Part shown: piece after piece, positions 1-39,145 of the stretch
Layout of the letters: each line of letters begins with the position of its first letter
Position numbering within the stretch: the first letter of the stretch is position 1
Origin: an uncultured Acidobacteriia bacterium
GTDB lineage: Bacteria > Acidobacteriota > Terriglobia > Bryobacterales > Bryobacteraceae
Direction: 5' to 3'
Assembly: GCA_903828455.1 (NCBI GenBank)
Contig: CAIKMJ010000041.1
Coordinates: forward strand, 62,001 to 126,000
DNA length: 64,000 nt
Translations under genes and position numbers: made by a program
Notes under the pieces: generated by a model
Seen by the model: the letters and a program-made list of their open reading frames with translations, nothing else
Told to the model about the DNA's origin: nothing
Database searches by the model: none

Positions 1-767
1 GGAGCCAGATCCAGAACCGGAACGCTTTGGGGCGATGCTACCGCGTTACCGTCCAGCGCGATCACGCGGAAAGTGTGCCCGCTCAGCGCGACGCGGTGCT
101 GCATTGTTGCGCTTGCGTTCAGCACACGGAAAAGAACCTGGTGTGAAGCTTTCACCCGAATTGGCTCGCCCGCGCCCAGCATTTTGCCGTTGATGGTAAA
201 CGTGCGGTAGTTCACGTCCATATCCATATCGGCGGAGAAGAAACCCTCCCACTCGTGCAGGATGATGGGGACTTCTACGTCGTATCGGCCGGGGTCGCTC
301 TTCGGTTCAATAATTGCCATGCCGAACTGGCCTGAATAGCCAGCTTTAGTGAGGTTGTGCCCCGCCATTGCGTGTGTGTGATACCAGCGCGTGCCTGTGG
401 GCCCGGGAGTAAATTCGAAGCGCCGTCTGGAATAACCCATCACCATCGGGGTTCCTTCCTCGTGCGCACCATCGACATCCGGCGGTATGTGGAATCCGTG
501 CCAGTGGAGCATCTCCGGCTCAACTGTTTCGTTGACAAGGTCGACCGTGACGCGCTTGCCTTCCGTCATCCGCACGAGAGGGCCGGGAACCTGGTCGTTG
601 TACACCGTGGTCTTGACCATGTGCTTTGGACCAAGTTCGACAGTCATTTCGCGAACGGTGAACGTAAAATCCGCCGCGGTCTGCCCGCTCTCAGCACCCG
701 CTCTGTTACCCAGCAGCGCCGATGCGGCTATCGCGCCCGAGCAGGAAAGTAGTTCTCTTCTTGTCAT
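1..767 (-). CDS. Multicopper oxidase, Tat-exported (3' end beyond window)
   Basis: Reading the minus strand from ATG at 767 gives about 255 residues with no stop before the window edge, so the C-terminal part is missing. The N-terminus (MTRRELLSCSGAIAASALLG) has a twin-arginine pair followed by a hydrophobic stretch. Copper-binding motifs of the first cupredoxin domain are plain: HWHGFH at residues 88-93 and WYHTH at 128-132. A second cupredoxin domain begins near residue 165. The C-terminal HCH copper motifs are not visible. The family oxidises phenols, metals or other donors and reduces oxygen to water in the periplasm. The start lies 31 bp after the upstream hydrolase stop, so the two are probably co-transcribed at the end of the amine dehydrogenase locus. 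The substrate is unknown. Confidence 0.9.
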   Translation of the reverse strand, partial: MTRRELLSCSGAIAASALLGNRAGAESGQTAADFTFTVREMTVELGPKHMVKTTVYNDQVPGPLVRMTEGKRVTVDLVNETVEPEMLHWHGFHIPPDVDGAHEEGTPMVMGYSRRRFEFTPGPTGTRWYHTHAMAGHNLTKAGYSGQFGMAIIEPKSDPGRYDVEVPIILHEWEGFFSADMDMDVNYRTFTINGKMLGAGEPIRVKASHQVLFRVLNASATMQHRVALSGHTFRVIALDGNAVASPQSVPVLDLA

Positions 768-798
768 GATGGATCGACCGGCCGTTCTGCAATTCGCG

Positions 799-2157
799 TC
801 ATCGATGTGCGGCCAGCCAGCCCGCCATGTCCCCGATCGCCTCCGCCGCTACGTTGCCTGGTTTTCGGTATTCAGCAGGCGACGGTGCACCTTCGCCTGC
901 AATGAAAAGATGATTCAGGCCGGGGTAGGTTCGGAATTCATAGCGCGTGCCGCTGAGTCCCGCCCTCCACGTTTTGAAGTCGTCCATCGTGACCTGAAAG
1001 TCACGCTCGCCCTGGAGGATCAGCATCGGAATGCCGGCACGCTTCGCTTCAGCGACGGGCTCGTACGTCTTCAGATCCAGAAAATATTCGACAGGAAGTC
1101 CGAGCAGCACCTCGGGATTATCTTTCTTCGGCTGAAGCGCCTTAACCTGCGCGGCCTCTTCTTTCATGTGTTCGAAGCGTTCGCGTTCCTGCGGAGTCGG
1201 GCCGCCCTTGGCTTGCAGCATGAACTCCGTCTGTGCGAGGCTCATATCCTCGATCCGCCGTGTGTTGCCGGCAAGCAGAATGATTCCCGCAAGTTTTCCG
1301 TCCTGAACTGCTATTCGAGGTGCAATATAGCCGCCAAGGCTGTGTCCCAGCACGTAAACGTGGCGCGGATCGACTTCTGGTTGCTTTCGCGCCAAAGCGA
1401 TCGCCCTCAGAGCGTCCTCGACCGTTTCCTGCTGGATGGTAAAAGCAAGTGCGCTCATCCGCTCGCCGTAGACTTTCGTCCGTTTGTCATAACGAATGAC
1501 GACGTAGCCGCGCGATGAGAGCCCTTCCGCAATGTCTTCGAACATTCGCGTGGCCATCAGTCCTTCGTTGCGATCGTTGGGCCCCGGGCCGTGAACCAGG
1601 ACAACCGCCGGAAAGGGCCCTTTTCCCGCCGGTGCTGTTAGTGTGCCCGGCAGTTTCCACGTATCTTCCCCTAAGATGATTTCACGCTCATGGAAGGACT
1701 CCGGCCGACTGTAAGGCGGCTGCTTCCACGTTGCGGGGAGCGGTGAGTTGGCGGGCCGGAAGTACATGCCGGCAACGTGTCCAAGATCGTTCAGCGAGAA
1801 CTGGACGTTGACGGTATTGGCAGAGAATTTTACAGGAAAGCTGACGAGGATCGTATTCCCGGTTTTCAGAACGACCGGCTCGCTGATTTGTTCTGCTTTG
1901 CCAAATCCCTTAATTTCCGCGTCCACGGTAGTTCGCAGAAAGTCCGGCGTCAGCTTCTCTTTCGCGTTAGCAGTCAGGACCTGTCCAAAGTCGTCGTAGC
2001 GCCCCGCAAGAAGCAAGTCAAGAGCCTTGCGGCCCGCCGCGACCGCGGTTGCGTCAGTTTGCGCGGGAAGCGCCGTCGCCGTGAGCAGAACCAGCGCCAG
2101 AGTAAACCCGCCGGACGCCCGCCGTTGTGACGTTGTTCTCATTGAGCAGGCCTGCAT
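799..2157 (-). CDS. Secreted alpha/beta-hydrolase with N-terminal DUF3887-like domain
   Basis: 452 residues from ATG at 2157; a second ATG at 2142 is equally possible and would put the signal peptide at the exact N-terminus. A hydrophobic signal segment ends near the ALPAQ site (about residue 33). Residues 38-135 resemble the DUF3887 domain often placed before S33-type hydrolases. The hydrolase domain follows: an HG oxyanion motif near 189, nucleophile elbow GHSLGG at 271-276 (Ser273), an acid in the LQGERD segment, and a late His in GLNHLF. It is likely a periplasmic esterase or peptidase. It starts only 16 bp after the stop of the amine dehydrogenase beta subunit, which suggests one transcript. 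Its role in amine metabolism is not known. Confidence 0.88.
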   Translation of the reverse strand: MQACSMRTTSQRRASGGFTLALVLLTATALPAQTDATAVAAGRKALDLLLAGRYDDFGQVLTANAKEKLTPDFLRTTVDAEIKGFGKAEQISEPVVLKTGNTILVSFPVKFSANTVNVQFSLNDLGHVAGMYFRPANSPLPATWKQPPYSRPESFHEREIILGEDTWKLPGTLTAPAGKGPFPAVVLVHGPGPNDRNEGLMATRMFEDIAEGLSSRGYVVIRYDKRTKVYGERMSALAFTIQQETVEDALRAIALARKQPEVDPRHVYVLGHSLGGYIAPRIAVQDGKLAGIILLAGNTRRIEDMSLAQTEFMLQAKGGPTPQERERFEHMKEEAAQVKALQPKKDNPEVLLGLPVEYFLDLKTYEPVAEAKRAGIPMLILQGERDFQVTMDDFKTWRAGLSGTRYEFRTYPGLNHLFIAGEGAPSPAEYRKPGNVAAEAIGDMAGWLAAHR

Positions 2158-2173: not shown

Positions 2174-3271
2174 TTACCGGACGATCACTAGTCCTGCACC
2201 GGTAATATCATTGCCAAGATCCCACGTATTTTCGAGCTGGAAAGTCTGTGCGTCGTACACCTCAATCTGGAAACTCGCACCATAGATATACAACTTGTTG
2301 CCGTCGCTGGACATCCCGAAGCTGAATCGGGATTTGCACGAGAACTCGGATTTATCCGCAATCTTGTTGGTCGCCAGATCGAATCGCCAGAACTCACAGC
2401 GCTTGTTGCCCAGAGTGCCGTTTGAGACGACCGTATAGGCAGTCTTCTTGTCGGGGGTCACCTGCAGCCCCGTCATGGCCGCCGGCGCCGGACCGATCGG
2501 GGAATAGTCCACTTTTCTGGAGTCCATGTCGAAGTGCGCAATGCCAAAGACCTTATTGTGGATGTAAGGGTCGGTAGAGTTAAACAGCGATACATGCTCG
2601 CCGGGTTCGCTGATGCTGTCGAGCAGTCCACCAAACGTGATGTTTTCCATCGCCGGAAGGTCGGGCGTCGACAGATCGATGCGGTCAACAACCTTAAAGT
2701 CGGCCGTGTCGAGTACGACTACTTTGTCCCGAAACTGATAAAGGTACTTGCCGTCTTTCGAAATCTCGAACGCGTTCCGCCCATATGCGGTCGTGGCCGA
2801 TTCATCTTCTTTCGCCAGATCGAAGGTTTTCGCTATCTTCTGCCCTTCAATATCGATAATCGTGTACTTCTGTTTTCCGATTTCAAAGTGATCGGCCAGC
2901 TTATCGATCTCCTGCGTCATTGCGTAAAAATACTTACCGGAGGGATCGGGTGTGCCGCCCGTGAAGCGGAAGCGCTTCGTCGCGGTATTTAGCGTGAAGT
3001 GATTGACGACCTTGTGAGTCGCAACGTCCACGACCTCAATGCCGCTGTGATCGTTCGTCGTGACGTAAATCAGCTTCTTGTCCGGCGAGAGCCGCATGCT
3101 CGTTGGCAGGCCCGTCGTGAGGGGAATTCTGTCGATCATCTGGCCCTTCGCTTCATCGAAGACCAGCAGAGAGCTGGGATAGGCACCCATAAAGATGGTC
3201 GCGCCCTGCGCGGAAACCCAGGCGAGTCCAAGGGCGATCGTGCCCACGATGCGGATAGCAGTCAGTTTCAT
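2174..3271 (-). CDS. qhpB: Quinohemoprotein amine dehydrogenase, beta subunit (beta-propeller)
   Basis: 365 residues from ATG at 3271. An open frame continues upstream, but this start begins directly with a signal peptide (MKLTAIRIVGTIALGLAWVS, cleavage after AQGA). The rest consists of YVTN-type propeller blades with repeated 'LSPDKKLIYV' and 'DPSGKYFYA' patterns, as in the seven-bladed QHNDH beta chain. In characterised enzymes this subunit caps the small quinone-bearing gamma subunit beside the diheme alpha subunit in the periplasm. The gene sits 100 bp after the gamma-subunit gene, matching the known order A-D-C-B. The identification rests mainly on this context, since propellers are generic, but it is strong. 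Confidence 0.93.
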   Translation of the reverse strand: MKLTAIRIVGTIALGLAWVSAQGATIFMGAYPSSLLVFDEAKGQMIDRIPLTTGLPTSMRLSPDKKLIYVTTNDHSGIEVVDVATHKVVNHFTLNTATKRFRFTGGTPDPSGKYFYAMTQEIDKLADHFEIGKQKYTIIDIEGQKIAKTFDLAKEDESATTAYGRNAFEISKDGKYLYQFRDKVVVLDTADFKVVDRIDLSTPDLPAMENITFGGLLDSISEPGEHVSLFNSTDPYIHNKVFGIAHFDMDSRKVDYSPIGPAPAAMTGLQVTPDKKTAYTVVSNGTLGNKRCEFWRFDLATNKIADKSEFSCKSRFSFGMSSDGNKLYIYGASFQIEVYDAQTFQLENTWDLGNDITGAGLVIVR

Positions 3272-3371
3272 AAGCGATGCCACTTTCTCCGAGTGCAGAA
3301 TATTAATGCGGACGGGGATAAGCCGTCCGCGTCGCAGGATCCCTTGCTGCCGCAACCGACCGGCGTGCAGT

Positions 3372-3707
3372 CTATGGGAAGACCAGATCCAAATTGCGCC
3401 AGTCTTTGGTCGCCGTCGCGCACTTACTGGCCCAATCGGGGTAATTATTCAGGTGATCCGGTACTTGCGCCGGCCAGAAGCAGGTAACGTAGCAGTCGTA
3501 GATGTCGCGTTCGGCGGGCATGCAGAGACCCGCGGTTCCGCCGGAAGAATCTACTTCCCAGCCTGGCGAAAATGACAGGGTGCAGCCCATGGGGACATGA
3601 GGGCGTTGCGCGGTCTGCAATGCCATTACGTCATCTTTGCTTTTTGACAATTCCAGCTGATCGTCGATACGACGAGCCTTTTTATTGATCGCTCGCAGGT
3701 GTTTCAT
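3372..3707 (-). CDS. qhpC: Quinohemoprotein amine dehydrogenase, gamma subunit precursor (CTQ cofactor)
   Basis: 111 residues from ATG at 3707, overlapping the qhpD stop by four bases (ATGA). About 35 residues act as leader; the rest matches the QHNDH gamma core residue by residue. With an offset of 35 from mature numbering, the three Cys-to-acid thioether pairs are Cys42-Glu51, Cys62-Asp68 and Cys76-Asp84. The cysteine tryptophylquinone pair is Cys72 with Trp78. Asp68 corresponds to the catalytic base of known enzymes. The neighbouring Trp of homologues is Phe77 here, and there is an extra Cys96. The product is crosslinked by QhpD in the cytoplasm, exported, and completed as a quinone cofactor. 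The leader carries many charged residues and has no Sec-like hydrophobic core, as expected for this route. Confidence 0.96.
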   Translation of the reverse strand: MKHLRAINKKARRIDDQLELSKSKDDVMALQTAQRPHVPMGCTLSFSPGWEVDSSGGTAGLCMPAERDIYDCYVTCFWPAQVPDHLNNYPDWASKCATATKDWRNLDLVFP

Positions 3708-5155
3708 AGCGCCTTCCTTTCGGCAAACTGTTCGAGAAATCCCGGATTCAGTGCGCTTACCGTGCCGTATATCTTCAGGCAGGTATCGGTCCAGTCGCGG
3801 ATCCAGTCGCAATAGTGGAGGTTCGCGTGCCCTGTGTCGCCGTAACGCACGAATGCTTCGTGATGGCACCCGCCGGCGCAGAGCGGCCGCGCCCAGCAGG
3901 TGCTGCACTCATATTTCGAATTCACGTGCCCCCGATCCAGAAAGTCGGCCTGTTTCGCCGCGTCGATCCCGGTGGAGACATGTCCCATGGCGTGCTGGTC
4001 GGAATCGACAAAGCGATGGCAGGGAGCAATATCGCCGGAAGGCCCCACTCCTACGAGGCCGAGCCCTGCACCGCACGGATGTGACTTGTTCACCCCCTGC
4101 ACGAGTTCGGCAATCGTCTCGCTGACATTTGAGAAGCCGTGCATTTCGCCGCGCAGGGCGTACTCCAGCCACTCCTCCGCAAGCGCGTGAAACTGATTGA
4201 GCACTCCGTCCATGCCTTTTTCGCCGATCGAATAGAGCCGGTCGGGCGAAGTTGTGACCGGTGCAAATCCGACTTCATGGAAGCCGAGGTCCTGCTTCAG
4301 ATGCCGGAAGATCCGCACCACGTCGGTGACGCCTGAAGTCATCGTCACGCGCGCCGTGATGGCGCGGGTGCGGTGCTTTTCAATGAGCAATTTCACTTTT
4401 GGCGCAATAATGTCGTAGCTCCCCTTGCCGTTGGCAAACACCCGCAGCTTGTCGTGCAGGTCCGGAGGGCCGTCCATACTGACCGTGACTCCGATTTTAT
4501 GCTCGGCGAGAAAGTCGATAATGGCCGGGGTCAGCAGCGTCGCATTGGTGGTCAAACTATAGTCGATGCGTTTTCCGTGAGCAGCGGCCTGCTCGCTGGC
4601 GTAGGTTACGACCTGTTTCAGCAGCGGGAAGTTCATCAGCGTCTCGCCGCCGAAAAACGTAATCTGCACGGCACTCCGCGAAACTGCGGACTGCATCAGG
4701 AAATCCACGGAGGCTTTGGCCGTCTCCAGATCCATGAACTTCGGCTTGCCTTCGGGAGTGGCGACTTTGTCAGCGCCAAACTCGTAGCAATACTCGCAGG
4801 ACAGGTTGCACTGATTGGTCAGATTCATGACCATCGACTGCAGCGGAAAGCCCGCGGGCGGGTTTTCCAGTCTCGCCGGTGCGGATTCTGAATCGACGAG
4901 CAGATGCGAGTGGTACATCTCTTCCACCAGCTCTTCTGCATCCGCGATCGTCAGCCCGCTCGTTGTCAGATCGTTAACCAGGCTCTCGTGCGCCGTGCCG
5001 CCGTTCCGTGCCAGCCGGATCAATGTTTCGGCTGCCTCGTCCAGCTCGAAAATTGCCCCGGCGTGGACCACGTAAACGAAGGTCCGCCCGCCACCCTCGA
5101 ACTGGTGGAACTCTCCGAGTCGATAAGTACGCGTTCCGGAAATCGTGGCCGTCAC
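3704..5155 (-). CDS. qhpD: Radical SAM maturase of amine dehydrogenase gamma subunit
   Basis: 483 residues from GTG at 5155. A longer frame reaches another GTG at 5179, but 5155 has a GAGGTG ribosome site 5-10 bases upstream and gives a GTGA overlap with qhpA. The N-terminal region (about 1-95) resembles a peptide-recognition domain. The radical SAM motif CNLSCEYC has cluster cysteines at 116, 120 and 123. A C-terminal SPASM region carries a CGAG...PC...CSTC...CAGGC cysteine series for auxiliary iron-sulfur clusters. In the known system this enzyme forms the intrapeptidyl Cys-Asp/Glu thioether bonds of QhpC, and the next gene is exactly that substrate, translationally coupled. Both the four-base overlap and the family assignment are clear. 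Confidence 0.95.
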   Translation of the reverse strand: MTATISGTRTYRLGEFHQFEGGGRTFVYVVHAGAIFELDEAAETLIRLARNGGTAHESLVNDLTTSGLTIADAEELVEEMYHSHLLVDSESAPARLENPPAGFPLQSMVMNLTNQCNLSCEYCYEFGADKVATPEGKPKFMDLETAKASVDFLMQSAVSRSAVQITFFGGETLMNFPLLKQVVTYASEQAAAHGKRIDYSLTTNATLLTPAIIDFLAEHKIGVTVSMDGPPDLHDKLRVFANGKGSYDIIAPKVKLLIEKHRTRAITARVTMTSGVTDVVRIFRHLKQDLGFHEVGFAPVTTSPDRLYSIGEKGMDGVLNQFHALAEEWLEYALRGEMHGFSNVSETIAELVQGVNKSHPCGAGLGLVGVGPSGDIAPCHRFVDSDQHAMGHVSTGIDAAKQADFLDRGHVNSKYECSTCWARPLCAGGCHHEAFVRYGDTGHANLHYCDWIRDWTDTCLKIYGTVSALNPGFLEQFAERKAL

Positions 5156-6912
5156 GGATTCACCTCGGGTTGATCCCACTTGATGTAAGTCGGCACTGAA
5201 ACCACCAGATAGGATTTGCCGGTGAGCGGTTTGCCGAACTTATCCTTATCGTTCTTTGCCGTCGCAACCACCCACACATTGCCGTAGTTATTCCTGCTGA
5301 ATTTACGCTCCGGATTGGGTCCGTCGGAGGCAGGGGTAAACAAAGCGGTTTCGCTCAGGTGGCCGACGAAGGCTTTGTCATCGTCTCCGTAGACCGAGTA
5401 GAATTCCTCTACCGACCAGGTGGCTTCGATCGTCCCGAGATTGATATCGTCAGCCGTGTTCATCTTGCCGTCTGCCCCGCGGTTGAAACCAATCGCCTCG
5501 AACTGCTGATAGCCTTTCGGATGCACGTCGCTTCCGAGCCGCGCCAGAGCTGTTTCCGGAGTGACTTTGATGTAGTCGACCTTGTCGTAAACCGCGATCG
5601 CGTTCGGAAGCGTGGAGCGTCGCAGTTCGACGTCGCGCAGTCCGTTCACGGCGTCTGCTGCTACTTCGACCTCTGCAACCAATTCACTGGCAGTGTGTGA
5701 GACGATTCGGGTGACTTTCACTCCCGAACCGAAATCCAGATCCGCCGGAGTCAGTTGCGCCGGGATGCTGTCTCCGTATAATTTGACCGGAACGGCCTTG
5801 GAGCCGGCCTTGATGGATGAAATGCTCACTCCCGACAGGGTTGGCTCGGAAGAGCCCCTCACCAGTTTCACGTCGAAGCCGAACTCCTGATAGTCGCCCC
5901 AATACCATCGGCCTTCGGCGGAGGACTGATCGGGTGCAATCCACATCGTCTCGCGTGCCTCGCGCGTGAGATCGTCCGGGTCTTTCGGCGTCGCCACACC
6001 CTTGGATCGGCCGCGCCAGGAGTACCCCGCGTATACAATCCCCTGGCCGGTCCGGGTAATTGTGGTGCCGTCCTTCACCGACTTGAGTTTGACCGTCGTT
6101 TTGAATTCATCGTCGGCCCCCGCCGGCTCGATCAACATGTCGCCGAAATAGATGCCGTGACCGGGGACTGTCGCCGTGACCAGCCACTTGCCCGCGATCT
6201 TCGGCGCACGCAGTCTTGCGCGCCACGCCGCCCACTCGGGAGTATGCAGCGGCGCGTTCTTGCTGAGGAAATCGAGCGCTGCGACGCCGGGCTCCGGAGT
6301 CGGGGCCGCGCCGGCCGCCGCGGGCGCCACGGTGATGGCACTGCCGTCGGGATTCCGCGTGGACCGGCGGAAATGCGTTTCTGCCTGCGCGTAGAGGGCC
6401 ACGTGCATGTTTTCCAGCAATTGCCAGTCGTCTTTCGAACGCCGCCATGTCAGCGGCCGGCCGAAGGCGTGGCATTCCGCGCATGCCGTCCGCACAGCGT
6501 CGTTCGGGATGTTGGTTTCATCGATCATCCGATGTTCGGCCATATACATCACCGGCTTTGCCTCTTCCGGCGCCAGACCGTGATAGGTGGCAAGATACTT
6601 CAGGATCCTCTTGCCCTCTTCCGGCGTGATCTTCAGGCCGTTCAGCCGAACCATTCGCTTGATGGCCTCTTCCCAGCCTTCCGGGGTGGTCCGCGCGTAG
6701 GAAATGCGCGAGAGATTACCTTTGGCGTCTTTGACGTGACAGGTTCCGCACTTCGAAACAACCAGGGGATCGGTGACCGGTATGCCGACTTCCGGCGCTT
6801 CGGTCGTTGCGGCAGGGGCGCTCCCGCTCCCGGTGGTGGTGCGCTGCCCCTGTGACAGTGGCGCGAGGCACAGCGCCGCGATTGCTAACCCAATGGCTGG
6901 TGATCTCTTCAC
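5152..6912 (-). CDS. qhpA: Quinohemoprotein amine dehydrogenase, alpha subunit (diheme cytochrome c)
   Basis: 586 residues from GTG at 6912, with GGAG about seven bases upstream. A signal peptide ends near residue 22 (LSQGQ). Two c-type heme motifs are present, CGTCH at 55-59 and CAECH at 144-148, matching the diheme domain of QHNDH alpha. The remaining residues form the beta-barrel domains of this family. The region around residues 200-240 is rich in Ala and Pro and may be an insertion relative to the Paracoccus and Pseudomonas enzymes (impression, not aligned). The enzyme oxidises primary amines to aldehydes and ammonia and passes electrons through these hemes to a periplasmic carrier. It heads the A-D-C-B block, with a 334-bp gap upstream likely to hold the promoter. 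Confidence 0.95.
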   Translation of the reverse strand: MKRSPAIGLAIAALCLAPLSQGQRTTTGSGSAPAATTEAPEVGIPVTDPLVVSKCGTCHVKDAKGNLSRISYARTTPEGWEEAIKRMVRLNGLKITPEEGKRILKYLATYHGLAPEEAKPVMYMAEHRMIDETNIPNDAVRTACAECHAFGRPLTWRRSKDDWQLLENMHVALYAQAETHFRRSTRNPDGSAITVAPAAAGAAPTPEPGVAALDFLSKNAPLHTPEWAAWRARLRAPKIAGKWLVTATVPGHGIYFGDMLIEPAGADDEFKTTVKLKSVKDGTTITRTGQGIVYAGYSWRGRSKGVATPKDPDDLTREARETMWIAPDQSSAEGRWYWGDYQEFGFDVKLVRGSSEPTLSGVSISSIKAGSKAVPVKLYGDSIPAQLTPADLDFGSGVKVTRIVSHTASELVAEVEVAADAVNGLRDVELRRSTLPNAIAVYDKVDYIKVTPETALARLGSDVHPKGYQQFEAIGFNRGADGKMNTADDINLGTIEATWSVEEFYSVYGDDDKAFVGHLSETALFTPASDGPNPERKFSRNNYGNVWVVATAKNDKDKFGKPLTGKSYLVVSVPTYIKWDQPEVNP

Positions 6913-7246
6913 ACGAACTCCTTCTGCCGTATTCAGCCGCTTTCAAAATGTCCGCTCCGCACACGTGCGGGAACGCAGGTGCATTCCGCGTGCGAAGTAC
7001 CAAAAAACTGTTGTGAAAGTCGTCCGACTGGGACGGAGAGCAAACGAGGTATTCCGAAATTCGCCTGAGCGGCGGCGAATCACTGCTTCGTGTACTTACG
7101 AGTGTGCCACCGTGTTTTGATCGCCGTCAATCGCGAAGCACATTCTTTCGCCTTCTATTTACTGATTGGCGGCATAACCAATACCAATGGCGCGGACAAG
7201 ATCCGATTTCCTGATGTCAAAGTGCCGGATGGAAAGGACTTGTCGC
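6913..7246. other. Intergenic region between qhpA and qhpF
   Basis: This 334-bp stretch separates the structural and maturase block from the exporter gene, both on the minus strand. It contains the qhpA ribosome site (GGAG) and the palindrome at 6957-6970. I see no convincing small gene, RNA or sigma-70 promoter in it. It presumably holds the qhpADCB promoter. Confidence 0.5.
6957..6970. promoter_or_regulatory. Palindrome upstream of qhpA, possible operator
   Basis: Six-base arms CCGCAC and GTGCGG flank a two-base centre (CCGCACACGTGCGG), about 45 bp upstream of the qhpA start. The position fits an operator, but known qhp operons are controlled by an AraC-type regulator whose sites need not be palindromic. 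No clear -35/-10 pair was recognised nearby. Confidence 0.3.
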
Positions 7247-8974
7247 TTACCTGTCCTGTGCGGAAGGCGTTGCGGACTCCGTGACGACCCGGCTATCCTC
7301 TGCGATCTGCGCCTTGCCCGCGCCTATCGTGATCACCGTGTCTGCGACCTCCGCCAGAGCCGGACGATGCGTGATGACGATCAGCGTCGCGCCGGGCAGC
7401 GCAGTCCGCAATCCGCTCGCGATGGCCTTCTCGGTTTCCGCGTCGAGCGCCGAAGTGGGCTCGTCAAGAATCAGCACGCTGGGCCGTCGCAGCAGTGCCC
7501 GCGCCAGCGCGATGCGTTGCCTTTCGCCCGCCGATAATGCCAGACCACGCTCACCGGTCTGTGTCGCGTAGCCCTGCGGAAGCCGTGCGATCAGTTCGTC
7601 GAGGCCGGCCGCCCGCCCGGCGTCTTCGATTGCCGCCTGCGTCGCATCGGGAAATGCAAAGCCAACGTTTTCCGCAATGCTGGCATTGAACAAATACGGC
7701 GTCTGATCGAGCAGCATGATCTGCTTCCGCAGATCCCCGAGCCGTAACGAACGCGCGTCCTTACCGTCGATCAGCACGCGCCCCTCATCGGGATCGAGAT
7801 TCCGTGCCACGAGGTCGGCAAGCGTGGACTTGCCTGCTCCACTCCGTCCCAGGATCGCGCAGAAGCTGCCGGCGGGAATCTCCAGCGAGATATCGTCCAA
7901 CACCGCGGCGCGGTCGTAACGCAGTGACACATGGTCCAGTCGGATGGCCTCGCGAACTTCCTGAAGCGGGGCCGCATCCGGAGCCTCCTGCACTTCGGCC
8001 TGCGTATCGAATAACTCGAAGATTCTGCCCAGCGACACCCGCGCCGAGGCCAGGCCCGACGTCATGCCCATCAGCCCCTGCAGCGGTGACAACAGCCGCA
8101 TGTGATACGCCATGAACGCCACCAGCGTGCCGATCGTCATTTCGTCTTCGATGATCAGCCAGCCGCCGTAAAGAAACACGGCTGCGGTGGCAACGGTCAG
8201 AATCGTTCCGGGTACAGCGCCGGTGAGGAACGACGCCACCTGAACATCGAGCATCGTTTTTACGAACGCGTCGTTGCGCTCGCGGAATCGATTCGCCTCG
8301 TGTTCGCCGGCGCGCAGCGCAATAACCACCCGCATTCCGAGGATGGTTTCGACAAAGAGGCTGCCGAGATCCGCGCTCCGCTCGCGCAGCGTCCGCGTCA
8401 GGCGAGTCAATTTCCGCTGGAAATGAAGAAACGCCGCCACGCACAACGGAACCAGAACCACCCCGACGAAGAACAGCCGCCAGTTCAGCCAGACCATCAT
8501 GGTGACACTGCCGGCAAAAAAAATCACGTTGCTCAGTACCGAAAGCAGCGTGTCCGCCGATACGCGCTGCACTTCGCCGACATCGCTGTTCAGGCGCGAC
8601 ATCAGGTCGCCCAGCCGGAAGCGCGCGTAAAAGCGTGGCGAGAGCGTTTGCAGATGGCGGAAGAGCGCGACTCGCATGTCGAAAAGCATCGCCGCCGAGA
8701 CTTTGGCGTAGCGGTAGGTTGCCGCGATGCTCGTAACGAAGCCCAGAATTGCCGCGAAGAGCATCAGCAGCGCAACGGTCCACAGCGCGTGCATGTCGCG
8801 CTTCAGCAGCGCCTGATCGATCAGCAGTTTGGAAATGTACGGCTGAGCAAGACTAAGTGCGGTTGAAAGCAGGCTGATCAGGATGACCAGCGCAAGCTGT
8901 CCTGTATACGGGCGCAGAAACACCCACAGCCGTCCGTATGACTTCCACTGCGCGATCGTGTCCGTTCGCTGCAT
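7247..8974 (-). CDS. qhpF: ABC exporter of the amine dehydrogenase system
   Basis: 575 residues from ATG at 8974: an N-terminal ABC exporter membrane domain with about six helices (residues 20-320), then a nucleotide-binding domain. Walker A GRSGAGKST begins at 376, the signature LSAGERQ at 480, and Walker B VLILDEP at about 500, followed by an H-loop histidine in ITHRP. It is a half-transporter expected to dimerise in the inner membrane. By sequence alone it resembles MsbA-type exporters, but its place between qhpG and qhpA matches QhpF, required in known systems for moving the crosslinked gamma subunit to the periplasm. The substrate is therefore inferred from context. Confidence 0.88.
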   Translation of the reverse strand: MQRTDTIAQWKSYGRLWVFLRPYTGQLALVILISLLSTALSLAQPYISKLLIDQALLKRDMHALWTVALLMLFAAILGFVTSIAATYRYAKVSAAMLFDMRVALFRHLQTLSPRFYARFRLGDLMSRLNSDVGEVQRVSADTLLSVLSNVIFFAGSVTMMVWLNWRLFFVGVVLVPLCVAAFLHFQRKLTRLTRTLRERSADLGSLFVETILGMRVVIALRAGEHEANRFRERNDAFVKTMLDVQVASFLTGAVPGTILTVATAAVFLYGGWLIIEDEMTIGTLVAFMAYHMRLLSPLQGLMGMTSGLASARVSLGRIFELFDTQAEVQEAPDAAPLQEVREAIRLDHVSLRYDRAAVLDDISLEIPAGSFCAILGRSGAGKSTLADLVARNLDPDEGRVLIDGKDARSLRLGDLRKQIMLLDQTPYLFNASIAENVGFAFPDATQAAIEDAGRAAGLDELIARLPQGYATQTGERGLALSAGERQRIALARALLRRPSVLILDEPTSALDAETEKAIASGLRTALPGATLIVITHRPALAEVADTVITIGAGKAQIAEDSRVVTESATPSAQDR

Positions 8975-8991
8975 CCGGAGCCTCGATTATA

Positions 8992-9008
8992 GCGGCGGTC
9001 ACCGCCGC
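8992..9008 (-). other. GC-rich hairpin between qhpG and qhpF, followed by a TATAAT box
   Basis: GCGGCGG and CCGCCGC form a seven-base stem with a three-base loop in the 56-bp gap after the qhpG stop. Immediately downstream on the minus strand lies TATAAT (8986-8991), 11 bases before the qhpF ATG. It could be an attenuator-like element between the two genes; there is no T run on the minus strand, so a classic terminator is unlikely. Confidence 0.35.
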
Positions 9009-9030
9009 CTTTGAAAAAATCGCTCGACGT

Positions 9031-10044
9031 TCACAGCGCGACGAGATCGAACCCATCGAGCCGATATCGAAATTTACCGTGCCTGAGCGCGGCCGATTCA
9101 CACCACGCGAGCCCGGTTTCGAGCGCTTCCAGTTCCTGCGTCCACCACGGGCCGGTTCCGCCGCTTCGGTAAAATTCGCGACACAGTTGCAGATGCCGCA
9201 TGAATCCCGCGGTAAGCCGGGCGCTGTAGTGCGCCACGATAGCTTCCGCGTTGGCGCGGTCGGCCGCTGCGGCGCGAATCGCTGCCGCGGCAAGAATCGC
9301 CTCGCGAACCGCGTGCGCGGTGCCGTCCCCGCAGACAGGATCGAACGCCATCGCGGCGGTGCCGCATGCCAGCCAGTCCGTGCCGCCGAGCGGAGAAATA
9401 ATTCTGGGGCACGCCGCAAATTCGCCGGACCGGTGCGTGAGCAATTCAACCCGCGGTCCGATCACGCGGCTCGATTCGAGTAATCGTTCCGGTGTGCTGC
9501 CCACTGCGAGCAGCCATGTTCCGGCGCCCGCGCGAGGGATGAGAAACAGCCAGCCTCCATCGAACGATTCAATCCAGCACGTCGACACGTCGGCGTCATT
9601 CCTGAGCCGCACCTCGACGGCCGAAGCCAGTCGGGTTCCGAAACGATGTTCGTGCGCTTCCGCGGGGAGTGGCCGCGATGCGAAAACGGTAAAGTCGGGA
9701 GGCTGGTTGTCGGCGGAGCCCTCGGCCAAAGTGAGTCCGGGCCGCAGACTATCGAGCAGCAATTCCTCGGAAACCACAACGGCCGAGTGCGGCAGCGCGG
9801 TGGCCTCTCCGGCCGGCCCCCACGCGACCACGCGCTGCGTGATGCGCGGCAGATCCGCAAATAAATCGGGCCGCGAGAAAACGTCGCGAATCAGGCTGAG
9901 CGCAAGATCGCTGAGCATGATGGCCGGCACGCGAGGTCGGTCGGTCCGGTCCAGTTCGACGCCGTGTCCGGCGCGCGTCAGCAACCACGCGCAGCAGTAA
10001 GCGGCGATGCCCTCTCCACGTATCCGGACGTTCAGGCGATCCAA
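9031..10044 (-). CDS. qhpG: FAD-dependent monooxygenase for tryptophylquinone formation
   Basis: 337 residues from TTG at 10044; no ATG or GTG precedes the nucleotide-binding motif, so the rare start is the best choice. A Rossmann-type RGEGIAA segment (residues 9-15) follows the first strand, and a late DPVCGDGTAH stretch with a downstream AVREAIL helix is typical of flavoprotein monooxygenases of the halogenase and QhpG type. In the characterised system QhpG dihydroxylates the gamma-subunit tryptophan so it can become the quinone cofactor. Its position next to qhpF and the rest of the cluster supports this assignment. It is the first gene of the minus-strand run, with a 141-bp divergent gap to the next plus-strand gene. 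Confidence 0.87.
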   Translation of the reverse strand: MDRLNVRIRGEGIAAYCCAWLLTRAGHGVELDRTDRPRVPAIMLSDLALSLIRDVFSRPDLFADLPRITQRVVAWGPAGEATALPHSAVVVSEELLLDSLRPGLTLAEGSADNQPPDFTVFASRPLPAEAHEHRFGTRLASAVEVRLRNDADVSTCWIESFDGGWLFLIPRAGAGTWLLAVGSTPERLLESSRVIGPRVELLTHRSGEFAACPRIISPLGGTDWLACGTAAMAFDPVCGDGTAHAVREAILAAAAIRAAAADRANAEAIVAHYSARLTAGFMRHLQLCREFYRSGGTGPWWTQELEALETGLAWCESAALRHGKFRYRLDGFDLVAL

Positions 10045-10185
10045 ACAAACACTATAGACCGTGTGTCAAGTCGCGCGCTTTGACTTTACAGCAACCCGGC
10101 GATCCGTTAATCTTTGAATGCGAGCTCCGTTGTGCCCGCGCGGCACTGCACGCCGGCAGACACAACCGTCAGGGAGATCACTCGC

Positions 10186-11295
10186 ATGAAATACATCATC
10201 GTAGTTTCCGTACTGTTTGCTGCCGGGATTGCTCCCGCGGCCGATGAGGCCGTGCCGGGCTCTGCTTCCACAGGCGCAGCCTGGGACCGGCAGGCGGCGG
10301 CGCGCTATCTCGATACTCGCGAAATCTGGTGGCAGGGCTGGTCCCGGTCGCAGCGCGATCACGAGACCAGTTGTGTCTCCTGCCATTCGGTGGTGCCATA
10401 CGCCCTGAGCAGACCTGCGCTGCGAAAGGAACTCGGCGAGACCGCACCGTCAGCCGCCGAAAGCAAAATGCTCGAATTCATCGTGAAGCGCGTGCGTTTG
10501 TGGAACGAAGTGGAAACGTTTTACAAGAGCAGCGCCACCGATCCGAACAAGGGCGTTGAGTCGCGCAGCACGGAAGCTGTTCTCAACGCGCTGATTCTCG
10601 CCGGTTATGACGCGGAGAAAGGTCATCTCAGCGACGTAACCCGCGCCGCCTTCGATGCCATGTGGACGCTCCAGGTGCCGTCCGGTCCAAAGGGCGGGGC
10701 ATGGGTTTGGCTGAACTTTCATTACTCGCCGTGGGAGGCCGACGAGTCGCAATACTGGGGCGCCGCGATGGCGGCTATTGCGGTGGGCACCGCGCCGGAC
10801 AATTACCGCGATGAGCCGACCATCCAGCCGAAGCTGGAAATTCTTCGCGGCTATTTGAAACGTACCTACGCTGCGCAACCGCTGGTGAACCAGGTCGCGC
10901 TTCTGTGGGCATCTTCGCGGTTACCCGGACTCATCACAGATTCGGAGAAAGCGGCGCTGAGCGATGCCCTGCTCGCCGCGCGCAATTCCGATGGCGGATG
11001 GAGCCTCAGCGCACTGGCTGAGTACAAACGGCGCGACGGTACGCCGCTCGAAACCAAGAGCGACGGGTACGCAACCGGCATCACAGTGCTGGCGCTTGAA
11101 GAAGCTGGCCCAACGACGATGCAACCCGCGATCCGCGGCGGGTTGGCGTGGCTGGCGGCGAATCAGGACAGATCGGAGGGCTTGTGGCCCGCGTGGTCGG
11201 TCAACAAGCAGCGCGACCCCGCTTCCGATCCTGGTCGCTTCATGAGCGACGCGGCCACGGGTTACGCAGTTCTGGCGCTACTGGGAAGTCGTTAA
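10186..11295 (+). CDS. Secreted protein with one heme-c motif and cyclase/prenyltransferase-like repeats
   Basis: 369 residues from ATG at 10186 with AGGGAGA upstream; the frame is open further 5' but this start begins the signal peptide (MKYIIVVSVLFAAGIAPA). A CVSCH motif lies shortly after the signal, suggesting covalent heme. The remainder is alpha-helical repeats with RNSDGGW and similar patches, like squalene-hopene cyclase or prenyltransferase barrels, and databases often label such genes that way. No DxDD catalytic motif of class II cyclases is visible, so a cyclase function is doubtful. It is divergent from qhpG and may or may not be related to it. Function unknown. Confidence 0.8.
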   Translation: MKYIIVVSVLFAAGIAPAADEAVPGSASTGAAWDRQAAARYLDTREIWWQGWSRSQRDHETSCVSCHSVVPYALSRPALRKELGETAPSAAESKMLEFIVKRVRLWNEVETFYKSSATDPNKGVESRSTEAVLNALILAGYDAEKGHLSDVTRAAFDAMWTLQVPSGPKGGAWVWLNFHYSPWEADESQYWGAAMAAIAVGTAPDNYRDEPTIQPKLEILRGYLKRTYAAQPLVNQVALLWASSRLPGLITDSEKAALSDALLAARNSDGGWSLSALAEYKRRDGTPLETKSDGYATGITVLALEEAGPTTMQPAIRGGLAWLAANQDRSEGLWPAWSVNKQRDPASDPGRFMSDAATGYAVLALLGSR

Positions 11296-35668: not shown

Positions 35669-35782
35669 CTTCTCCATGCCGCGCGAATGACGCCGGGACT
35701 TTCGCCGCCGCCCCGTGTTTGAGTTAATAGGTACAGACGCCGCGACTATGCAGTTGCGGACTTTAACGCTCAATCACCGGAG

Positions 35783-38700
35783 ATGAATTTGCTTCGTCCT
35801 TCCGTTCGTTCCAGGCTCGCGAAATTCCTTCTGTCCATCGCCTCGGCGCACCTTGCGTGGGTGGTGCCCGCCGCGGCGCAGTTGGCTCCCAATCGTTATG
35901 CGATCATCCTGTCGGATGAGGCCCCCGCGCGTCGTTTCGCCTCCCGGGACGAGATTCAGGGCGCAGCGGCGCAGGCTTACCAGCGGCAGATCGAAACGGC
36001 GCAGCGGACCCTCCGCGCTCAGCTGGAGCAGCGCAAAATCCGCGTGACAGGCACGGCGAGCCTATTGCTGAATGCCGTATTTATCGCGGCCACGCCGGAT
36101 CGCGTGGCCGAAATTCAAAGCCTGCCCGGCGTCCTCGCCGTGGTGCCGCAGCGCATCTACAAGCCGCTGCTCAATCGTGCCGACGGTCTGATCAACGGCC
36201 CTGCCGCCTGGCAGCTTTCCGGTGGCTTTGCCAACGCCGGCAAAGGCATCAGGATCGCCATCATCGATACCGGCGTGGATCAGATGCATCCCGCCCTGCA
36301 GGACCCCACGCTGCCCATGCCGCCGGGCTTCCCGAAATGCGACACGCCGCCCCCCGGCCAGACTTACAACGACTGCGCGTTTACCAACAGCAAGGTGATC
36401 GTCGCCCGCAGCTACATCGCAATGCAGGGCGCGGGCACCGATCCTTCCAATCCTTCGGTCGATTCCAAAGCGGATGATTTTTCCGCGCGTGACCGCCAGG
36501 GCCACGGCACCAACACCGCCAGCACTGCCGCCGGCAACACCGCCGTGGGCGCGGTGACCATCAATGGCATGGCGCCGAAAGCGTATATCGGAAACTACAA
36601 AATTTTCGGGTCCACCGGAGTCGTCGCCGGAGGCACCACAGACGCCATTGTCGCGGCCATCGAAGACGCCGTTCGTGACGGCATGGATGTCCTGTCCATG
36701 TCATTCGGCCAGCCCGCCTTCACCGCGCCTTTTGATACCGGCGCTGCCTGCACGGGCGCCAATGGCGGTGTGGCGAATGCCCCGGGTATTGCCTGCGATC
36801 TGATTGCCGCGGCGATTGAGGCCGCCATCCGGCAGGGCGTTGTCGCTGTAGTGGCTGCGGGCAACGCCGGCCAGAGCGGTGTCAATCCCGTCGCGCAGAC
36901 GCTGAATACCGTGGGCTCACCGGGCTATGTTCCGGACGTGATCACCTCTGGCGCCAGCACCAACTCGCACGACTTCATTTCCGTTGTGTCGGTCACCGGC
37001 GCGGGCGTTCCGGCCTCGCTCAACAGCATCGCCGCAGTCCCCGCGCCCACAGCCGCTCCTGGCGCTGCGATTACCGCTCCGCTGGCGGACGTCGCCACGC
37101 TGGGTAACGACGGTTACGCCTGCGCCGCGCTGCCGCCCGGCTCCCTGAAGGGCCAGCTCGCCCTCATCGAGCGCGGCCCCGCCTCGTCACCCTGCCTGTT
37201 CTCTCTGAAGATGAGCAACGCCCTTGCCGCCGGCGCGGTCGGCGTCGTGTTCTATATGGCGGATCAGAGTCAGCCCATTCCTGCCGGTGGCCTGACCGCT
37301 TTCAATGCGCCCGCCGCCATGATTTCCAACTCTGATGGCGCGTCGCTGAAGAACTATATTGATGCCAACGCCGGACACCCGGTCACCCTGAGTCCACTCC
37401 AGGAGCAAGTACTCACCACTTACAATCAGCTCGCGCCGTTTTCGTCGAGCGGCCCCACGCTCGGCACCTACGCCATGAAGCCGGACGTGCTGGCCCCGGG
37501 ACGCAACATGTACATGGCAACCCAGTCCTTCGATCCGCTCGGCGAACTGTACAGCCCGAACGGCTACACCGTTGCCGATGGCACCAGTTATTCCACCCCG
37601 ATGACCTCCGGCGCCGTAGCTTTGGTGAAACAGGCGCATCCAGGCTACACCCCGGCCCAGATCAAATCGGCACTGCTCAACACAGCGACGCAGGAAGTAG
37701 CGGCCGTCGAAACCGGCGCTGCAGTGAACGTGCTGCAGACCGGTGCGGGCAAGGTGGCGACCGATGCCGCGATTGCCAACAACCTCACCGTCTCGCCCCC
37801 CAGCGTCTCTTTCGGCGCGCTCACCGGAAAGTCCGTTTCCGCATCGCAGCAGTTTCAGGTCACCAATACCGGATCTTCGACGGTGAATCTTTCGCTCGCC
37901 GTGGTGAGCGGTGTCGCAGTGGCCGGCACGACTCTGGCCCTCGATCATCCGGCGCTCTCGCTCGCCGCCGGCGCCTCCGGGACATTCACTCTGACTCTTT
38001 CCGGTTCTGTGCCCGCCGCCGGCGTCTACTCCGGCGCGGTCACGTTGCAGGGCGGCGGGCAGACCACGCGCGTGCCATACATGTTTCTCGTCGGCACCGG
38101 CACGGTGAATGACCTCATCCCGCTGTCCGGCGACGGGAACGACGGCACCGTGAATCAGATCATCCCGGACACCTATGTCGCCTTCATGCTGATCGATTCC
38201 TCGGGCGTGCCCGTGGCCGGTCATCCCGTAAGTTTCACTGCCGATGCCGGCCTTCATTTGTCGCAGGTTTCCACCGTAACCGACGCGTATGGCATCGCCT
38301 ACGCCACGGTCACCATGGGGCCGACGCCCGGCGCCTACAGCGTCACCGGATGCGCTGCTTCCCCCTGCACCCGTAGCGCGCTCTCATATCAGTTCAGCGA
38401 ATTCAGCCGCGTCACGCCGCAGATTACCGCCGCCGGTGTTGTGGATGCAGCCAGCTTCCGTCAGCCCATTGCGCCGGGCTCTTACATCGCGATCTTCGGC
38501 AGCAACCTCACCGACGCCTCGCTCACGCCCGCCGGATCCGGTGTGGATCAGAATTCCGACGCGCGCCTGCCGCTCAACATCGACTACACGCAGGTGAGCT
38601 TCGACGTGCCGTCCGCCGGCATCAGCGTGCCGGGCCGCATCGCCTACATCAGTTCCGGGCAACTGGTCGCGCAGGTGCCGTGGGAACTTGCCGGGCAGAA

Positions 38701-39145
38701 AGCGGCGCAGGTGAAAGTCACCATCAACAACAGCTTCGGCAACGTCGTGACTGTGCCGCTCTCAGACTACGCACCGGCACTGTTTGAAAGCAGCGGCGTG
38801 GCGATTGCCGTGGATGCTTCCGGCAACCTGATCACCGCGTCCAACCCGGCGGGTCGCGGACAACCGATCACGCTTTACGCCAACGGTCTGGGACCCGTCA
38901 GCAATCCGCCCGCCAGCGGCGATCCGGCATTGGGCTCGCCACTGTCCTGGACCACCACGATGCCTGTCGTCACGATCGGCGGGCAAAGCGCCGGCGTGCC
39001 GCAGTTCAGCGGCCTGACCCCCACGCTGCCGGGCCTGTACCAGATCAACCTGACGGTCCCGCAGAATATCGCGGCGGGCACGCTGCCCATTGCGATTACG
39101 ATTGGCGGCCAGACGTCGAAGTCATCGACGATTCCGGTGCGCTGA
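35783..39145 (+). CDS. Secreted subtilase (S8) with PA and TIGR03437 domains
   Basis: 1120 residues from ATG at 35783, with a GGAGA site. A signal peptide (to about 33) and an inhibitor-I9-like propeptide (38-125) precede the S8 catalytic domain: Asp162 in IIDTGVD, His241 in GHGTNTAS, Ser602 in DGTSYSTPM. A PA-type insert lies between them (about 425-540), as in lactocepin-like subtilases. Beta-sandwich domains and a Solibacter TIGR03437 domain (about 890-1120, with APGSYIAIFGSNL) end the protein. It is an extracellular protease, possibly cell-surface. The last 50 bp overlap the convergent rnc gene. It is too large and too far away to be assigned as the missing QhpE. Confidence 0.92.
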   Translation: MNLLRPSVRSRLAKFLLSIASAHLAWVVPAAAQLAPNRYAIILSDEAPARRFASRDEIQGAAAQAYQRQIETAQRTLRAQLEQRKIRVTGTASLLLNAVFIAATPDRVAEIQSLPGVLAVVPQRIYKPLLNRADGLINGPAAWQLSGGFANAGKGIRIAIIDTGVDQMHPALQDPTLPMPPGFPKCDTPPPGQTYNDCAFTNSKVIVARSYIAMQGAGTDPSNPSVDSKADDFSARDRQGHGTNTASTAAGNTAVGAVTINGMAPKAYIGNYKIFGSTGVVAGGTTDAIVAAIEDAVRDGMDVLSMSFGQPAFTAPFDTGAACTGANGGVANAPGIACDLIAAAIEAAIRQGVVAVVAAGNAGQSGVNPVAQTLNTVGSPGYVPDVITSGASTNSHDFISVVSVTGAGVPASLNSIAAVPAPTAAPGAAITAPLADVATLGNDGYACAALPPGSLKGQLALIERGPASSPCLFSLKMSNALAAGAVGVVFYMADQSQPIPAGGLTAFNAPAAMISNSDGASLKNYIDANAGHPVTLSPLQEQVLTTYNQLAPFSSSGPTLGTYAMKPDVLAPGRNMYMATQSFDPLGELYSPNGYTVADGTSYSTPMTSGAVALVKQAHPGYTPAQIKSALLNTATQEVAAVETGAAVNVLQTGAGKVATDAAIANNLTVSPPSVSFGALTGKSVSASQQFQVTNTGSSTVNLSLAVVSGVAVAGTTLALDHPALSLAAGASGTFTLTLSGSVPAAGVYSGAVTLQGGGQTTRVPYMFLVGTGTVNDLIPLSGDGNDGTVNQIIPDTYVAFMLIDSSGVPVAGHPVSFTADAGLHLSQVSTVTDAYGIAYATVTMGPTPGAYSVTGCAASPCTRSALSYQFSEFSRVTPQITAAGVVDAASFRQPIAPGSYIAIFGSNLTDASLTPAGSGVDQNSDARLPLNIDYTQVSFDVPSAGISVPGRIAYISSGQLVAQVPWELAGQKAAQVKVTINNSFGNVVTVPLSDYAPALFESSGVAIAVDASGNLITASNPAGRGQPITLYANGLGPVSNPPASGDPALGSPLSWTTTMPVVTIGGQSAGVPQFSGLTPTLPGLYQINLTVPQNIAAGTLPIAITIGGQTSKSSTIPVR

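What the first reader, a model, noticed from the sequence alone, without database searches (positions are those of the whole stretch)
2174..10044. Nearly complete quinohemoprotein amine dehydrogenase locus in an acidobacterium
Six genes of the qhp system (G, F, A, D, C, B) lie in one direction, including all three structural subunits, the radical SAM maturase, the exporter and the tryptophan-modifying flavoenzyme. The system is characterised in Pseudomonadota; this gene set suggests that a gut- or soil-type acidobacterium can oxidise primary amines in the periplasm. The phylum assignment is itself inference.
Basis: partly seen in the sequence, partly recalled or inferred. Interest (0 to 1): 0.72.

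Follow-up and report, generated by a model that had tools for sequence, protein, structure and literature searches.

The report
Split amine dehydrogenase gene cluster
The stretch holds real genes for a periplasmic enzyme thought to burn small amines using a cofactor carved out of its own protein chain; the missing gene of the set lies just outside in a second copy of the cluster, and some relatives may make the cofactor with a different, oxygen-free type of enzyme.

Summary
Six minus-strand genes (2174-10044) encode QhpG-like, QhpF, QhpA, QhpD, QhpC and QhpB of quinohemoprotein amine dehydrogenase; QhpA, QhpC and QhpD pass NCBI equivalog cut-offs, and all eight cross-link and cofactor residues of gamma are conserved. 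The missing protease QhpE lies 2.1 kb beyond the window edge, at the end of a second, convergent operon (A-D-C-B-E) that has no F or G. So the two operons probably share E, F and G.

The window's QhpG is a divergent short class: 337 aa, no winged-helix domain, far below the QhpG cut-off, yet its family profile's best PDB match is QhpG 7CTQ.

In 36 acidobacterial qhp genomes the candidate Trp-hydroxylase gene is short QhpG (17), long QhpG (11) or the V-like gene of a UbiU/UbiV-like pair (10); short QhpG never co-occurs with the others; one genome has none. In a named-genome scan a U-like gene lies beside qhp genes in 26 of 30 loci: a candidate O2-independent route to the cofactor. The window genome lacks V-like.

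The parts
9031..10044 (-). qhpG-like gene (337 aa): short flavoprotein, predicted peptidyl-tryptophan hydroxylase without the C-terminal winged-helix domain
   Evidence: NF049967 66.3 bits, below cut-off 240; family profile A1 best PDB hit 7CTQ E 7.4e-11; GxGxxA, RxVxW and GWLFL invariant and FDPxxGxG kept in the 11 rows of A1; relative inside a full qhp operon on NZ_CP141945.1
7247..8974 (-). qhpF (575 aa): ABC exporter predicted to carry modified QhpC to the periplasm
   Evidence: PF00664 + PF00005; groups with 57 other qhp-locus exporters, SH-aLRT 98, apart from 5 G000 paralogs; nearest paralog in genome 31% identity
5152..6912 (-). qhpA (586 aa): di-heme alpha subunit, signal peptide-like N-terminus (by eye), CGTCH and CAECH heme motifs
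   Evidence: TIGR03908 562.9 bits; four Pfam alpha domains; 1jmx_A E 6.7e-62
3704..5155 (-). qhpD (483 aa): radical SAM/SPASM maturase predicted to make the three Cys-Asp/Glu thioether cross-links
   Evidence: TIGR03906 633.9 bits; CX3CX2C motif; tree
3372..3707 (-). qhpC (111 aa): gamma subunit precursor with leader; predicted site of the cysteine tryptophylquinone cofactor
   Evidence: PF08992 125.7 bits, NF037958 143.6 bits, 1jmx_G E 4e-24; C7,E16,C27,D33,C37,C41,W43,D49 (P. putida numbering) conserved
2174..3271 (-). qhpB (365 aa): beta subunit, beta-propeller, divergent
   Evidence: TIGR03907 73.0 bits, below cut-off 223.2; 1jju_B E 2e-8, second of four PDB matches after surface-layer protein 1l0q; place next to qhpC
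10114..11295 (+). Possible partner: predicted exported protein with one CVSCH heme c motif, divergent from qhpG; relatives flank qhp in 4 other loci
   Evidence: CVSCH in 5 of 5 relatives; found in 5 of 57 qhp loci; no Pfam or NCBIfam match at E 0.001
799..2157 (-). EstD-like alpha/beta hydrolase directly after qhpB; a relative is also near qhp in L087 and L089
   Evidence: NF041096 339.2 bits, cut-off 600; Pfam; groups 5 and 11. Membership in the system not shown
1..848 (-). 5' part (open frame) of a multicopper oxidase gene that runs over the left window edge (C41:61439-62848), between the two qhp operons
   Evidence: Three Cu-oxidase Pfams

Best explanation
A QHNDH biogenesis cluster of an acidobacterium (Bryobacteraceae-like), split over two convergent operons about 4.2 kb apart. 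Operon 1 (window) makes alpha, beta and gamma subunits plus QhpD, the exporter QhpF and a short QhpG. Operon 2 (left of the window, C41:54251-59929) makes a second alpha, beta, gamma and QhpD set plus the protease QhpE. Each QhpD cross-links its own gamma subunit; the single short QhpG hydroxylates the conserved Trp of both; QhpE cuts both leaders; QhpF exports both; the hemes of alpha finish the quinone in the periplasm, where the enzymes oxidise primary amines and pass electrons on, probably to a small c-type cytochrome or copper protein (recalled from the family). Shown here: the genes, their families, the conserved residues and the layout. Inferred: that the proteins are made, that E, F and G serve both gamma subunits, the substrate and the acceptor.
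For: Alpha, gamma and QhpD pass NCBI equivalog cut-offs; the QhpE left of the window passes its own (181.8 vs 165). Eight of eight cross-link/cofactor residues conserved in both gamma subunits (residue roles from PMC8172795 passages). Whole-genome searches: two gamma subunits; three alpha over the cut-off and a fourth weak hit of 21.1 bits; one short QhpG, next hit 19.3 bits; no long QhpG at E 1e-30, 26 of 56 candidates scored; no V-like gene; next QhpF paralog 31% identity. Family profiles over the window plus 32 kb to the left find one F, one G and one E; a second E-profile hit, window 35723-39142, scores only 24.4 bits. A full A-D-C-B-G-F-E operon with the short QhpG is on Novosphingobium plasmid NZ_CP141945.1. 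Of the 18 tested qhp genomes with neither long QhpG nor V-like, 17 have short QhpG; of the 18 with either, 0 have it.
Against: Beta and QhpG fall below curated cut-offs. QhpE was searched only in the window and its left flank, not genome-wide. No AraC-type QhpR or aldehyde dehydrogenase like those of Paracoccus (AraC also Leisingera, Cupriavidus) was found in the window or left flank. The reported chemistry of QhpD, QhpE and QhpG is single-turnover, with enzyme and substrate in one operon (PMC7876137), which argues that sharing one QhpE and one QhpG between two gamma subunits could be limiting. The AlphaFold model of P0006 alone was too poor to use (pLDDT 37). The exclusion of short QhpG with the other modules is not significant once phylogeny is allowed for (5 independent pairs: 4 go the opposite way, 1 does not differ; p 0.125).
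Confidence: 0.8

Rival explanations
1. The short QhpG-like protein is some other flavoprotein that happens to sit in the operon, and the Trp hydroxylation is done by another enzyme.
For: 66 bits against a cut-off of 240; lacks the winged-helix domain; in the genome-wide search two other open frames score higher on the QhpG model than P0006 does (78.4 and 63.8 against 56.4 bits), and the model also rings in all 14 control genomes.
Against: Its family profile's best PDB match is QhpG 7CTQ; the two higher-scoring frames match model positions 1-287, which hold the FAD-binding part common to such enzymes, while P0006 matches 160-335; the family is in 11 acidobacterial qhp loci and one Novosphingobium operon; it occurs in 17 of the 18 tested qhp genomes that lack both other modules and in 0 of 18 that have one. 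Its presence in genomes without qhp was not searched.
Confidence: 0.12
2. The two operons are functionally independent enzymes; operon 1 uses an unrelated protease for its leader and operon 2 an unrelated hydroxylase and exporter.
For: The two sets are old paralogs: A 45%, B 35%, C 56%, D 50% identity, in separate supported clades of the QhpD tree; in G465 the two types lie on different contigs.
Against: Each lacks what the other has; in G465 a type-2 operon with E but no F within about 20 kb lies 5.6 kb from a lone short qhpG (L107); no other QhpF-, QhpG- or V-like candidate of comparable score was found in the genome.
Confidence: 0.2
3. The cluster is intact but its real substrate is not a small primary amine (for instance an amino sugar or polyamine), as the TonB/Oar-type receptor beside operon 2 may suggest.
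For: A TonB/Oar-type outer-membrane protein lies near qhp in 18 of 57 loci; beta, which helps to form the active-site cavity (recalled), is divergent.
Against: The catalytic gamma subunit keeps all eight special residues; no direct evidence on substrate either way.
Confidence: 0.25
4. A decayed locus without function.
For: None found.
Against: All six ORFs are open, two pairs overlap start on stop, and the gamma, heme and radical SAM motifs are kept.
Confidence: 0.03

Closest known systems
qhp operon (qhpABCDEFGR) of Paracoccus denitrificans / Pseudomonas putida, QHNDH
   Same: A, B, C, D, E, F homologs, gamma cross-link and CTQ residues, A-D-C-B core order as in Paracoccus yeei L188
   Different: Split over two convergent operons with two alpha/beta/gamma/QhpD sets; short QhpG without winged-helix domain; no QhpR or aldehyde dehydrogenase neighbour found; divergent beta
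QhpG peptidyl tryptophan dihydroxylase (7CTQ)
   Same: Best PDB match of the family profile; FAD-type GxGxxA motif; parts of the RxVxW and GW motifs align with canonical QhpG relatives
   Different: 337 aa against 432 in the PDB chain; no C-terminal winged-helix domain (residues 349-429 of QhpG, PMC7876137 section 11); below the NF049967 cut-off
UbiU/UbiV and other U32 oxidases (related qhp loci only; no V-like hit in this genome)
   Same: U-like protein: PF01136 115 bits, hhalign probability 99% with E. coli UbiU; V-like protein: exactly four invariant Cys in 23 rows, CXnCX18CX3C, like UbiV CXnCX12CX3C; among the 50 rows shown its model has the best TM-scores with U32 protein 5d88 (0.41/0.50)
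   Different: U-like is far below the UbiU equivalog cut-off (88.9 and 95.5 vs 440); V-like has no Pfam or NCBIfam match and no detectable similarity to E. coli UbiV; linked to qhp genes

Membership tests
QHNDH (three-subunit quinohemoprotein amine dehydrogenase) | Alpha subunit with two heme c motifs and four alpha domains | tested here: met
   TIGR03908 562.9 bits, four Pfam domains, CGTCH and CAECH
QHNDH (three-subunit quinohemoprotein amine dehydrogenase) | Gamma subunit with three Cys-Asp/Glu pairs and CTQ pair Cys37-Trp43 | tested here: met
   All eight residues conserved; chemistry itself not tested
QHNDH (three-subunit quinohemoprotein amine dehydrogenase) | Beta-propeller beta subunit | tested here: inconclusive
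   TIGR03907 73 bits, below 223.2; PDB matches include 1jju_B and 1jmx_B but the best is a surface-layer propeller; gene position fits
QHNDH (three-subunit quinohemoprotein amine dehydrogenase) | Quinone cofactor and amine dehydrogenase activity | not testable with these tools
   Needs purified protein
qhp biogenesis set | QhpD radical SAM maturase | tested here: met
   TIGR03906 633.9 vs 453
qhp biogenesis set | QhpE subtilisin-like protease | tested here: met
   NF049966 181.8 vs 165 for P0012, outside the window in operon 2
qhp biogenesis set | QhpF ABC exporter in the qhp clade | tested here: met
   Tree, SH-aLRT 98; no bootstrap, paralogs on long branches
qhp biogenesis set | QhpR regulator nearby | tested here: not met
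   No match to three canonical neighbours' AraC proteins in window, L003 or L054; a different regulator is not excluded
QhpG equivalog (NF049967) | Score above the curated cut-off of 240 bits | tested here: not met
   66.3 bits; the acidobacterial long QhpG of L073 also falls short at 193.5
QhpG equivalog (NF049967) | C-terminal winged-helix domain | tested here: not met
   The 11 rows aligned end without it; judged by length and alignment, no structure
QhpG equivalog (NF049967) | FAD-binding and re-face channel residues | tested here: inconclusive
   GxGxxA, RxVxW, GWLFL and FDP motifs kept; mapping to 7CTQ rests on alignment only

The most novel reading that the evidence does not exclude
The tryptophan-hydroxylating step of CTQ biogenesis is a swappable module with three forms: long QhpG, a short winged-helix-less QhpG (this window, where one copy serves two gamma subunits made from two operons), and an O2-independent pair of UbiU/UbiV-like [4Fe-4S] U32 enzymes. 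The third form would mean that a protein-derived quinone can be built without oxygen.
Probability: 0.6. Interest if true: 0.85.

Novelty: new variant of a known kind. Interest (0 to 1): 0.62.

Why it matters
QhpG was described as essential for CTQ and as reacting with dioxygen (PMC7876137, title and section 13). The window shows a shorter form of it, apparently serving two paralogous enzymes, which tests whether the winged-helix domain is needed and whether the maturases are truly single-use. Relatives show QHNDH gene sets with a U32-oxidase pair in the operon and no QhpG found, in Acidobacteriota, Bacillota, Pseudomonadota, Nitrospinota and other groups. If that pair hydroxylates Trp, it would extend U32 oxidases, so far tied to ubiquinone and RNA (PMC11574389, passages), to peptidyl tryptophan, and would let QHNDH be matured without oxygen.

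Tried and rejected
Rejected: (a) the window lacking QhpE means an incomplete system: E lies in the neighbouring operon. (b) QhpF as a stray MsbA-type exporter: the tree places it with qhp exporters. (c) A chance QhpG label: see rivals. (d) A V-like gene in the window's own genome: search empty.

Led nowhere: AlphaFold of P0006 without an alignment (pLDDT 37.4), not used for any claim; V-like against E. coli UbiV and UbiU by hhalign (no similarity); A2 and A3 against PDB sequences (best E 0.59 and 0.14); pdb_via not available; no AraC or aldehyde dehydrogenase neighbour. The phylogeny-aware test of module exclusion had too few pairs (p 0.125). The V-like model's Foldseek list is headed by chitinase-type chains (ranks 1-29, E from 2.9e-6, TM at most 0.37); the U32 structure 5d88 is rank 30 by E-value. 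Papers were searched only in the open-access library.
Full report
What is there. The window is C41:62001-126000 of a 4.40 Mb assembly, 98.6% complete. Six minus-strand genes at 2174-10044 read G-F-A-D-C-B. Alpha, QhpD and gamma pass NCBI equivalog cut-offs; beta (73 of 223 bits) and QhpG (66 of 240) do not; the exporter reaches no cut-off among the 25 families shown. Solved QHNDH chains are the only PDB matches of gamma and alpha at E 0.001 and two of four for beta, whose best match is surface-layer protein 1l0q. The gamma precursor keeps Cys7/Glu16, Cys27/Asp33, Cys41/Asp49 and Cys37/Trp43 (P. putida numbering; alignments; roles from passages of PMC8172795). The QhpD start overlaps the qhpA stop (GTGA) and the qhpC start overlaps the qhpD stop (ATGA).

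A second operon. The gamma-subunit search of the whole genome gave two hits, about 7.5 kb apart. The flank L003 (C41:44001-62000) carries, on the plus strand, a TonB/Oar-type receptor, alpha, QhpD, gamma, beta and a protease that passes the QhpE cut-off (181.8 of 165). The protease ends at C41:59929, 2.1 kb left of the window and 4.2 kb from the end of qhpB. Operon 2 has no F or G; operon 1 has no E. Identities between the two sets: A 45%, B 35%, C 56%, D 50%. A third alpha-like gene, with no gamma of its own found, lies further left (TIGR03908 381 bits).

Which organism. Genomes that the tool calls 'same family' as the window's have contigs whose lengths equal named records: G458:C1 6,182,012 = AP025252.1 Bryobacterales bacterium F-183; G289:C10 187,980 = CADEFM010000010.1 uncultured Acidobacteria; G399:C6 446,356 = CAMDCN010000006.1 Candidatus Sulfopaludibacter. 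So the window is, by inference, acidobacterial and Bryobacteraceae-like. Gamma subunits occur in 29 of 396 genomes sampled from the phylum (not all first-look candidates were scored).

The short QhpG. P0006 and ten relatives (open frames 329-413 aa) end where QhpG's winged-helix domain (residues 349-429, PMC7876137 section 11) would begin. Their profile's best PDB match is 7CTQ (E 7.4e-11; next FixC 1.1e-6). A Novosphingobium sp. RL4 plasmid carries A-D-C-B-short G-F-E in one direction, its QhpD 66% identical to the window's; this shows the short form inside a complete operon and suggests transfer between phyla.

Three modules. In 57 fetched acidobacterial qhp loci (L003 and L004 overlap, some are fragments), 11 have the short QhpG, 20 the long QhpG and 7 a V-like gene (6 with the U-like partner beside it; L098 without, the genome G458 having a U-like gene elsewhere, L155); none has two kinds; 19 show none within the stretch fetched, several being contig ends. 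Genome-wide searches with short QhpG (50 genomes), V-like (33 genomes; 396) and long QhpG (51 genomes) resolve these. Of the 36 acidobacterial qhp genomes given all three, 17 have short QhpG, 11 long, 10 V-like, 3 both long and V-like (G041, G116, G191), and 1 none (G424, 10.7 Mb, 10% contamination); short QhpG never meets the other two. I counted as present: short over 350 bits, V-like over 250, long over 289; the lowest accepted long hit (G376, 289.7 bits, positions 52-495 of 552) is well below the rest (588 or more). Hits under these lines (at most 42.5, 19.6 and 236.5 bits) counted as absent. Not all first-look candidates were scored: at most 42 a genome, 26, and 5 in the listed rows. If the traits were independent, no overlap has a chance of 2e-9, ignoring kinship; with kinship, 4 of 5 independent pairs go the expected way and 1 does not differ (p 0.125). 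On the QhpD tree (74 rows, locus labels, 16 unlabelled) supported branches force at least 3 (long), 8 (U/V) and 4 (short) changes.

The U/V pair. The U-like protein is a U32 family member (PF01136 115 bits in 2 of 2 scanned; UbiU model 55.8-102.5 bits in 6 of 6 scanned, cut-off 440). The V-like protein matches no family but has exactly four invariant cysteines in 23 rows, spaced CXnCX18CX3C, the UbiV arrangement being CXnCX12CX3C (PMC6747719 passages). Its model (pLDDT 88.8, pTM 0.90) has its highest TM-scores, among the 50 rows shown, with 5d88, the U32 structure (0.41/0.50), though 29 chitinase-type chains rank above it by E-value. In the phylum sample V-like has 8 hits in 396 genomes; 7 are strong and all 7 lie among the 29 gamma-bearing genomes (hypergeometric 5e-9; the model was built from qhp loci); the eighth (G198, 19.6 bits) is not a gamma-bearing genome and I treated it as noise. 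In the named-genome scan with the U-like alignment, 26 of 30 loci have a qhp gene in the fetched stretch (22 have alpha, gamma or QhpD; 25 of the 26 also have V-like beside U-like, L122 not), and none shows QhpG there; L126-L129 have the pair without qhp. At least seven of the 30 are contigs already seen among the G genomes (by length), so they are not independent. I tested 14 of these 30 genomes for QhpG: no short QhpG (best 34.7 bits), none over the QhpG cut-off and none with a full-length long QhpG (best 236.5 bits, positions 56-428 of 552); two of the 14 assemblies are small (2.3 and 1.5 Mb). Calidifontibacillus (Bacillota) has alpha, gamma, QhpD and QhpE above cut-offs, and Herminiimonas QhpD scores 637 of 453; their best QhpG-model hits are 32 and 38 bits. 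U32 oxidases hydroxylate ubiquinone precursors and RNA without O2, with prephenate as the likely oxygen source (PMC11574389 passages). I infer that the pair hydroxylates the CTQ tryptophan; nothing here shows it. V-like is not found in the window's genome.

Mechanism in the window. Inferred from Paracoccus work (PMC7876137: abstract, sections 11 and 13, and passages): QhpD cross-links QhpC, QhpG dihydroxylates Trp43, QhpE removes the leader, QhpF exports, and the alpha hemes may complete the quinone. Here QhpE, QhpF and QhpG each occur once in the examined stretch while QhpC and QhpD occur twice, so they most likely act in trans.

In print. The library (5.39 million open papers) gave no paper with 'tryptophylquinone' and 'U32' nor with 'amine dehydrogenase' and 'peptidase U32'. 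Of the hits for QHNDH (37 papers), UbiU/UbiV (13), QhpG (10) and qhpA/amine dehydrogenase/Acidobacteria, two of three terms (12), I saw listings, and passages of the papers named above plus one table row of PMC6662431. Most subscription papers are not held.

Noticed in passing
L047:11424-13459, L061:10056-12085, L063:11418-13392, L094:5978-7857, L102:12112-14021, L103:12090-13999 and L113-L142: UbiU/UbiV-like U32 pair beside qhp genes in loci without QhpG; candidate O2-independent Trp hydroxylase for CTQ biogenesis. Four of the 30 named loci (L126-L129) have the pair without qhp genes.
   Followed up: yes
L003:4691-6436 (C41:48691-50436, left of the window): Third QHNDH alpha-like gene without a gamma partner of its own, next to a DUF6152 gene.
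   Followed up: partly
window:10114-11295: Exported-looking protein with a single CVSCH heme c motif, divergent from qhpG; relatives flank qhp in L060, L087, L090, L091; possible electron acceptor.
   Followed up: partly
L003:6847-10227 and 17 other loci: TonB/Oar-type outer-membrane receptor near qhp in 18 of 57 loci; may hint at a larger substrate or its breakdown product.
   Followed up: no
window:1-2157 with C41:61439-62000: Multicopper oxidase and EstD-like hydrolase between the two operons; relatives of both also near qhp in L087 and L089.
   Followed up: no
L187 (NZ_CP141945.1, Novosphingobium sp. RL4 plasmid): Acidobacteria-type qhp operon A-D-C-B-short G-F-E in a sphingomonad, QhpD 66% identical to the window's: likely transfer between phyla.
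   Followed up: partly
G424 (L087): The one qhp genome of 36 with none of the three hydroxylase modules found; assembly of 10.7 Mb with 10% contamination.
   Followed up: no
G041, G116, G191, G253 (L151-L154): Long QhpG at the qhp locus plus a U/V pair on another contig, as if for oxic and anoxic maturation.
   Followed up: partly
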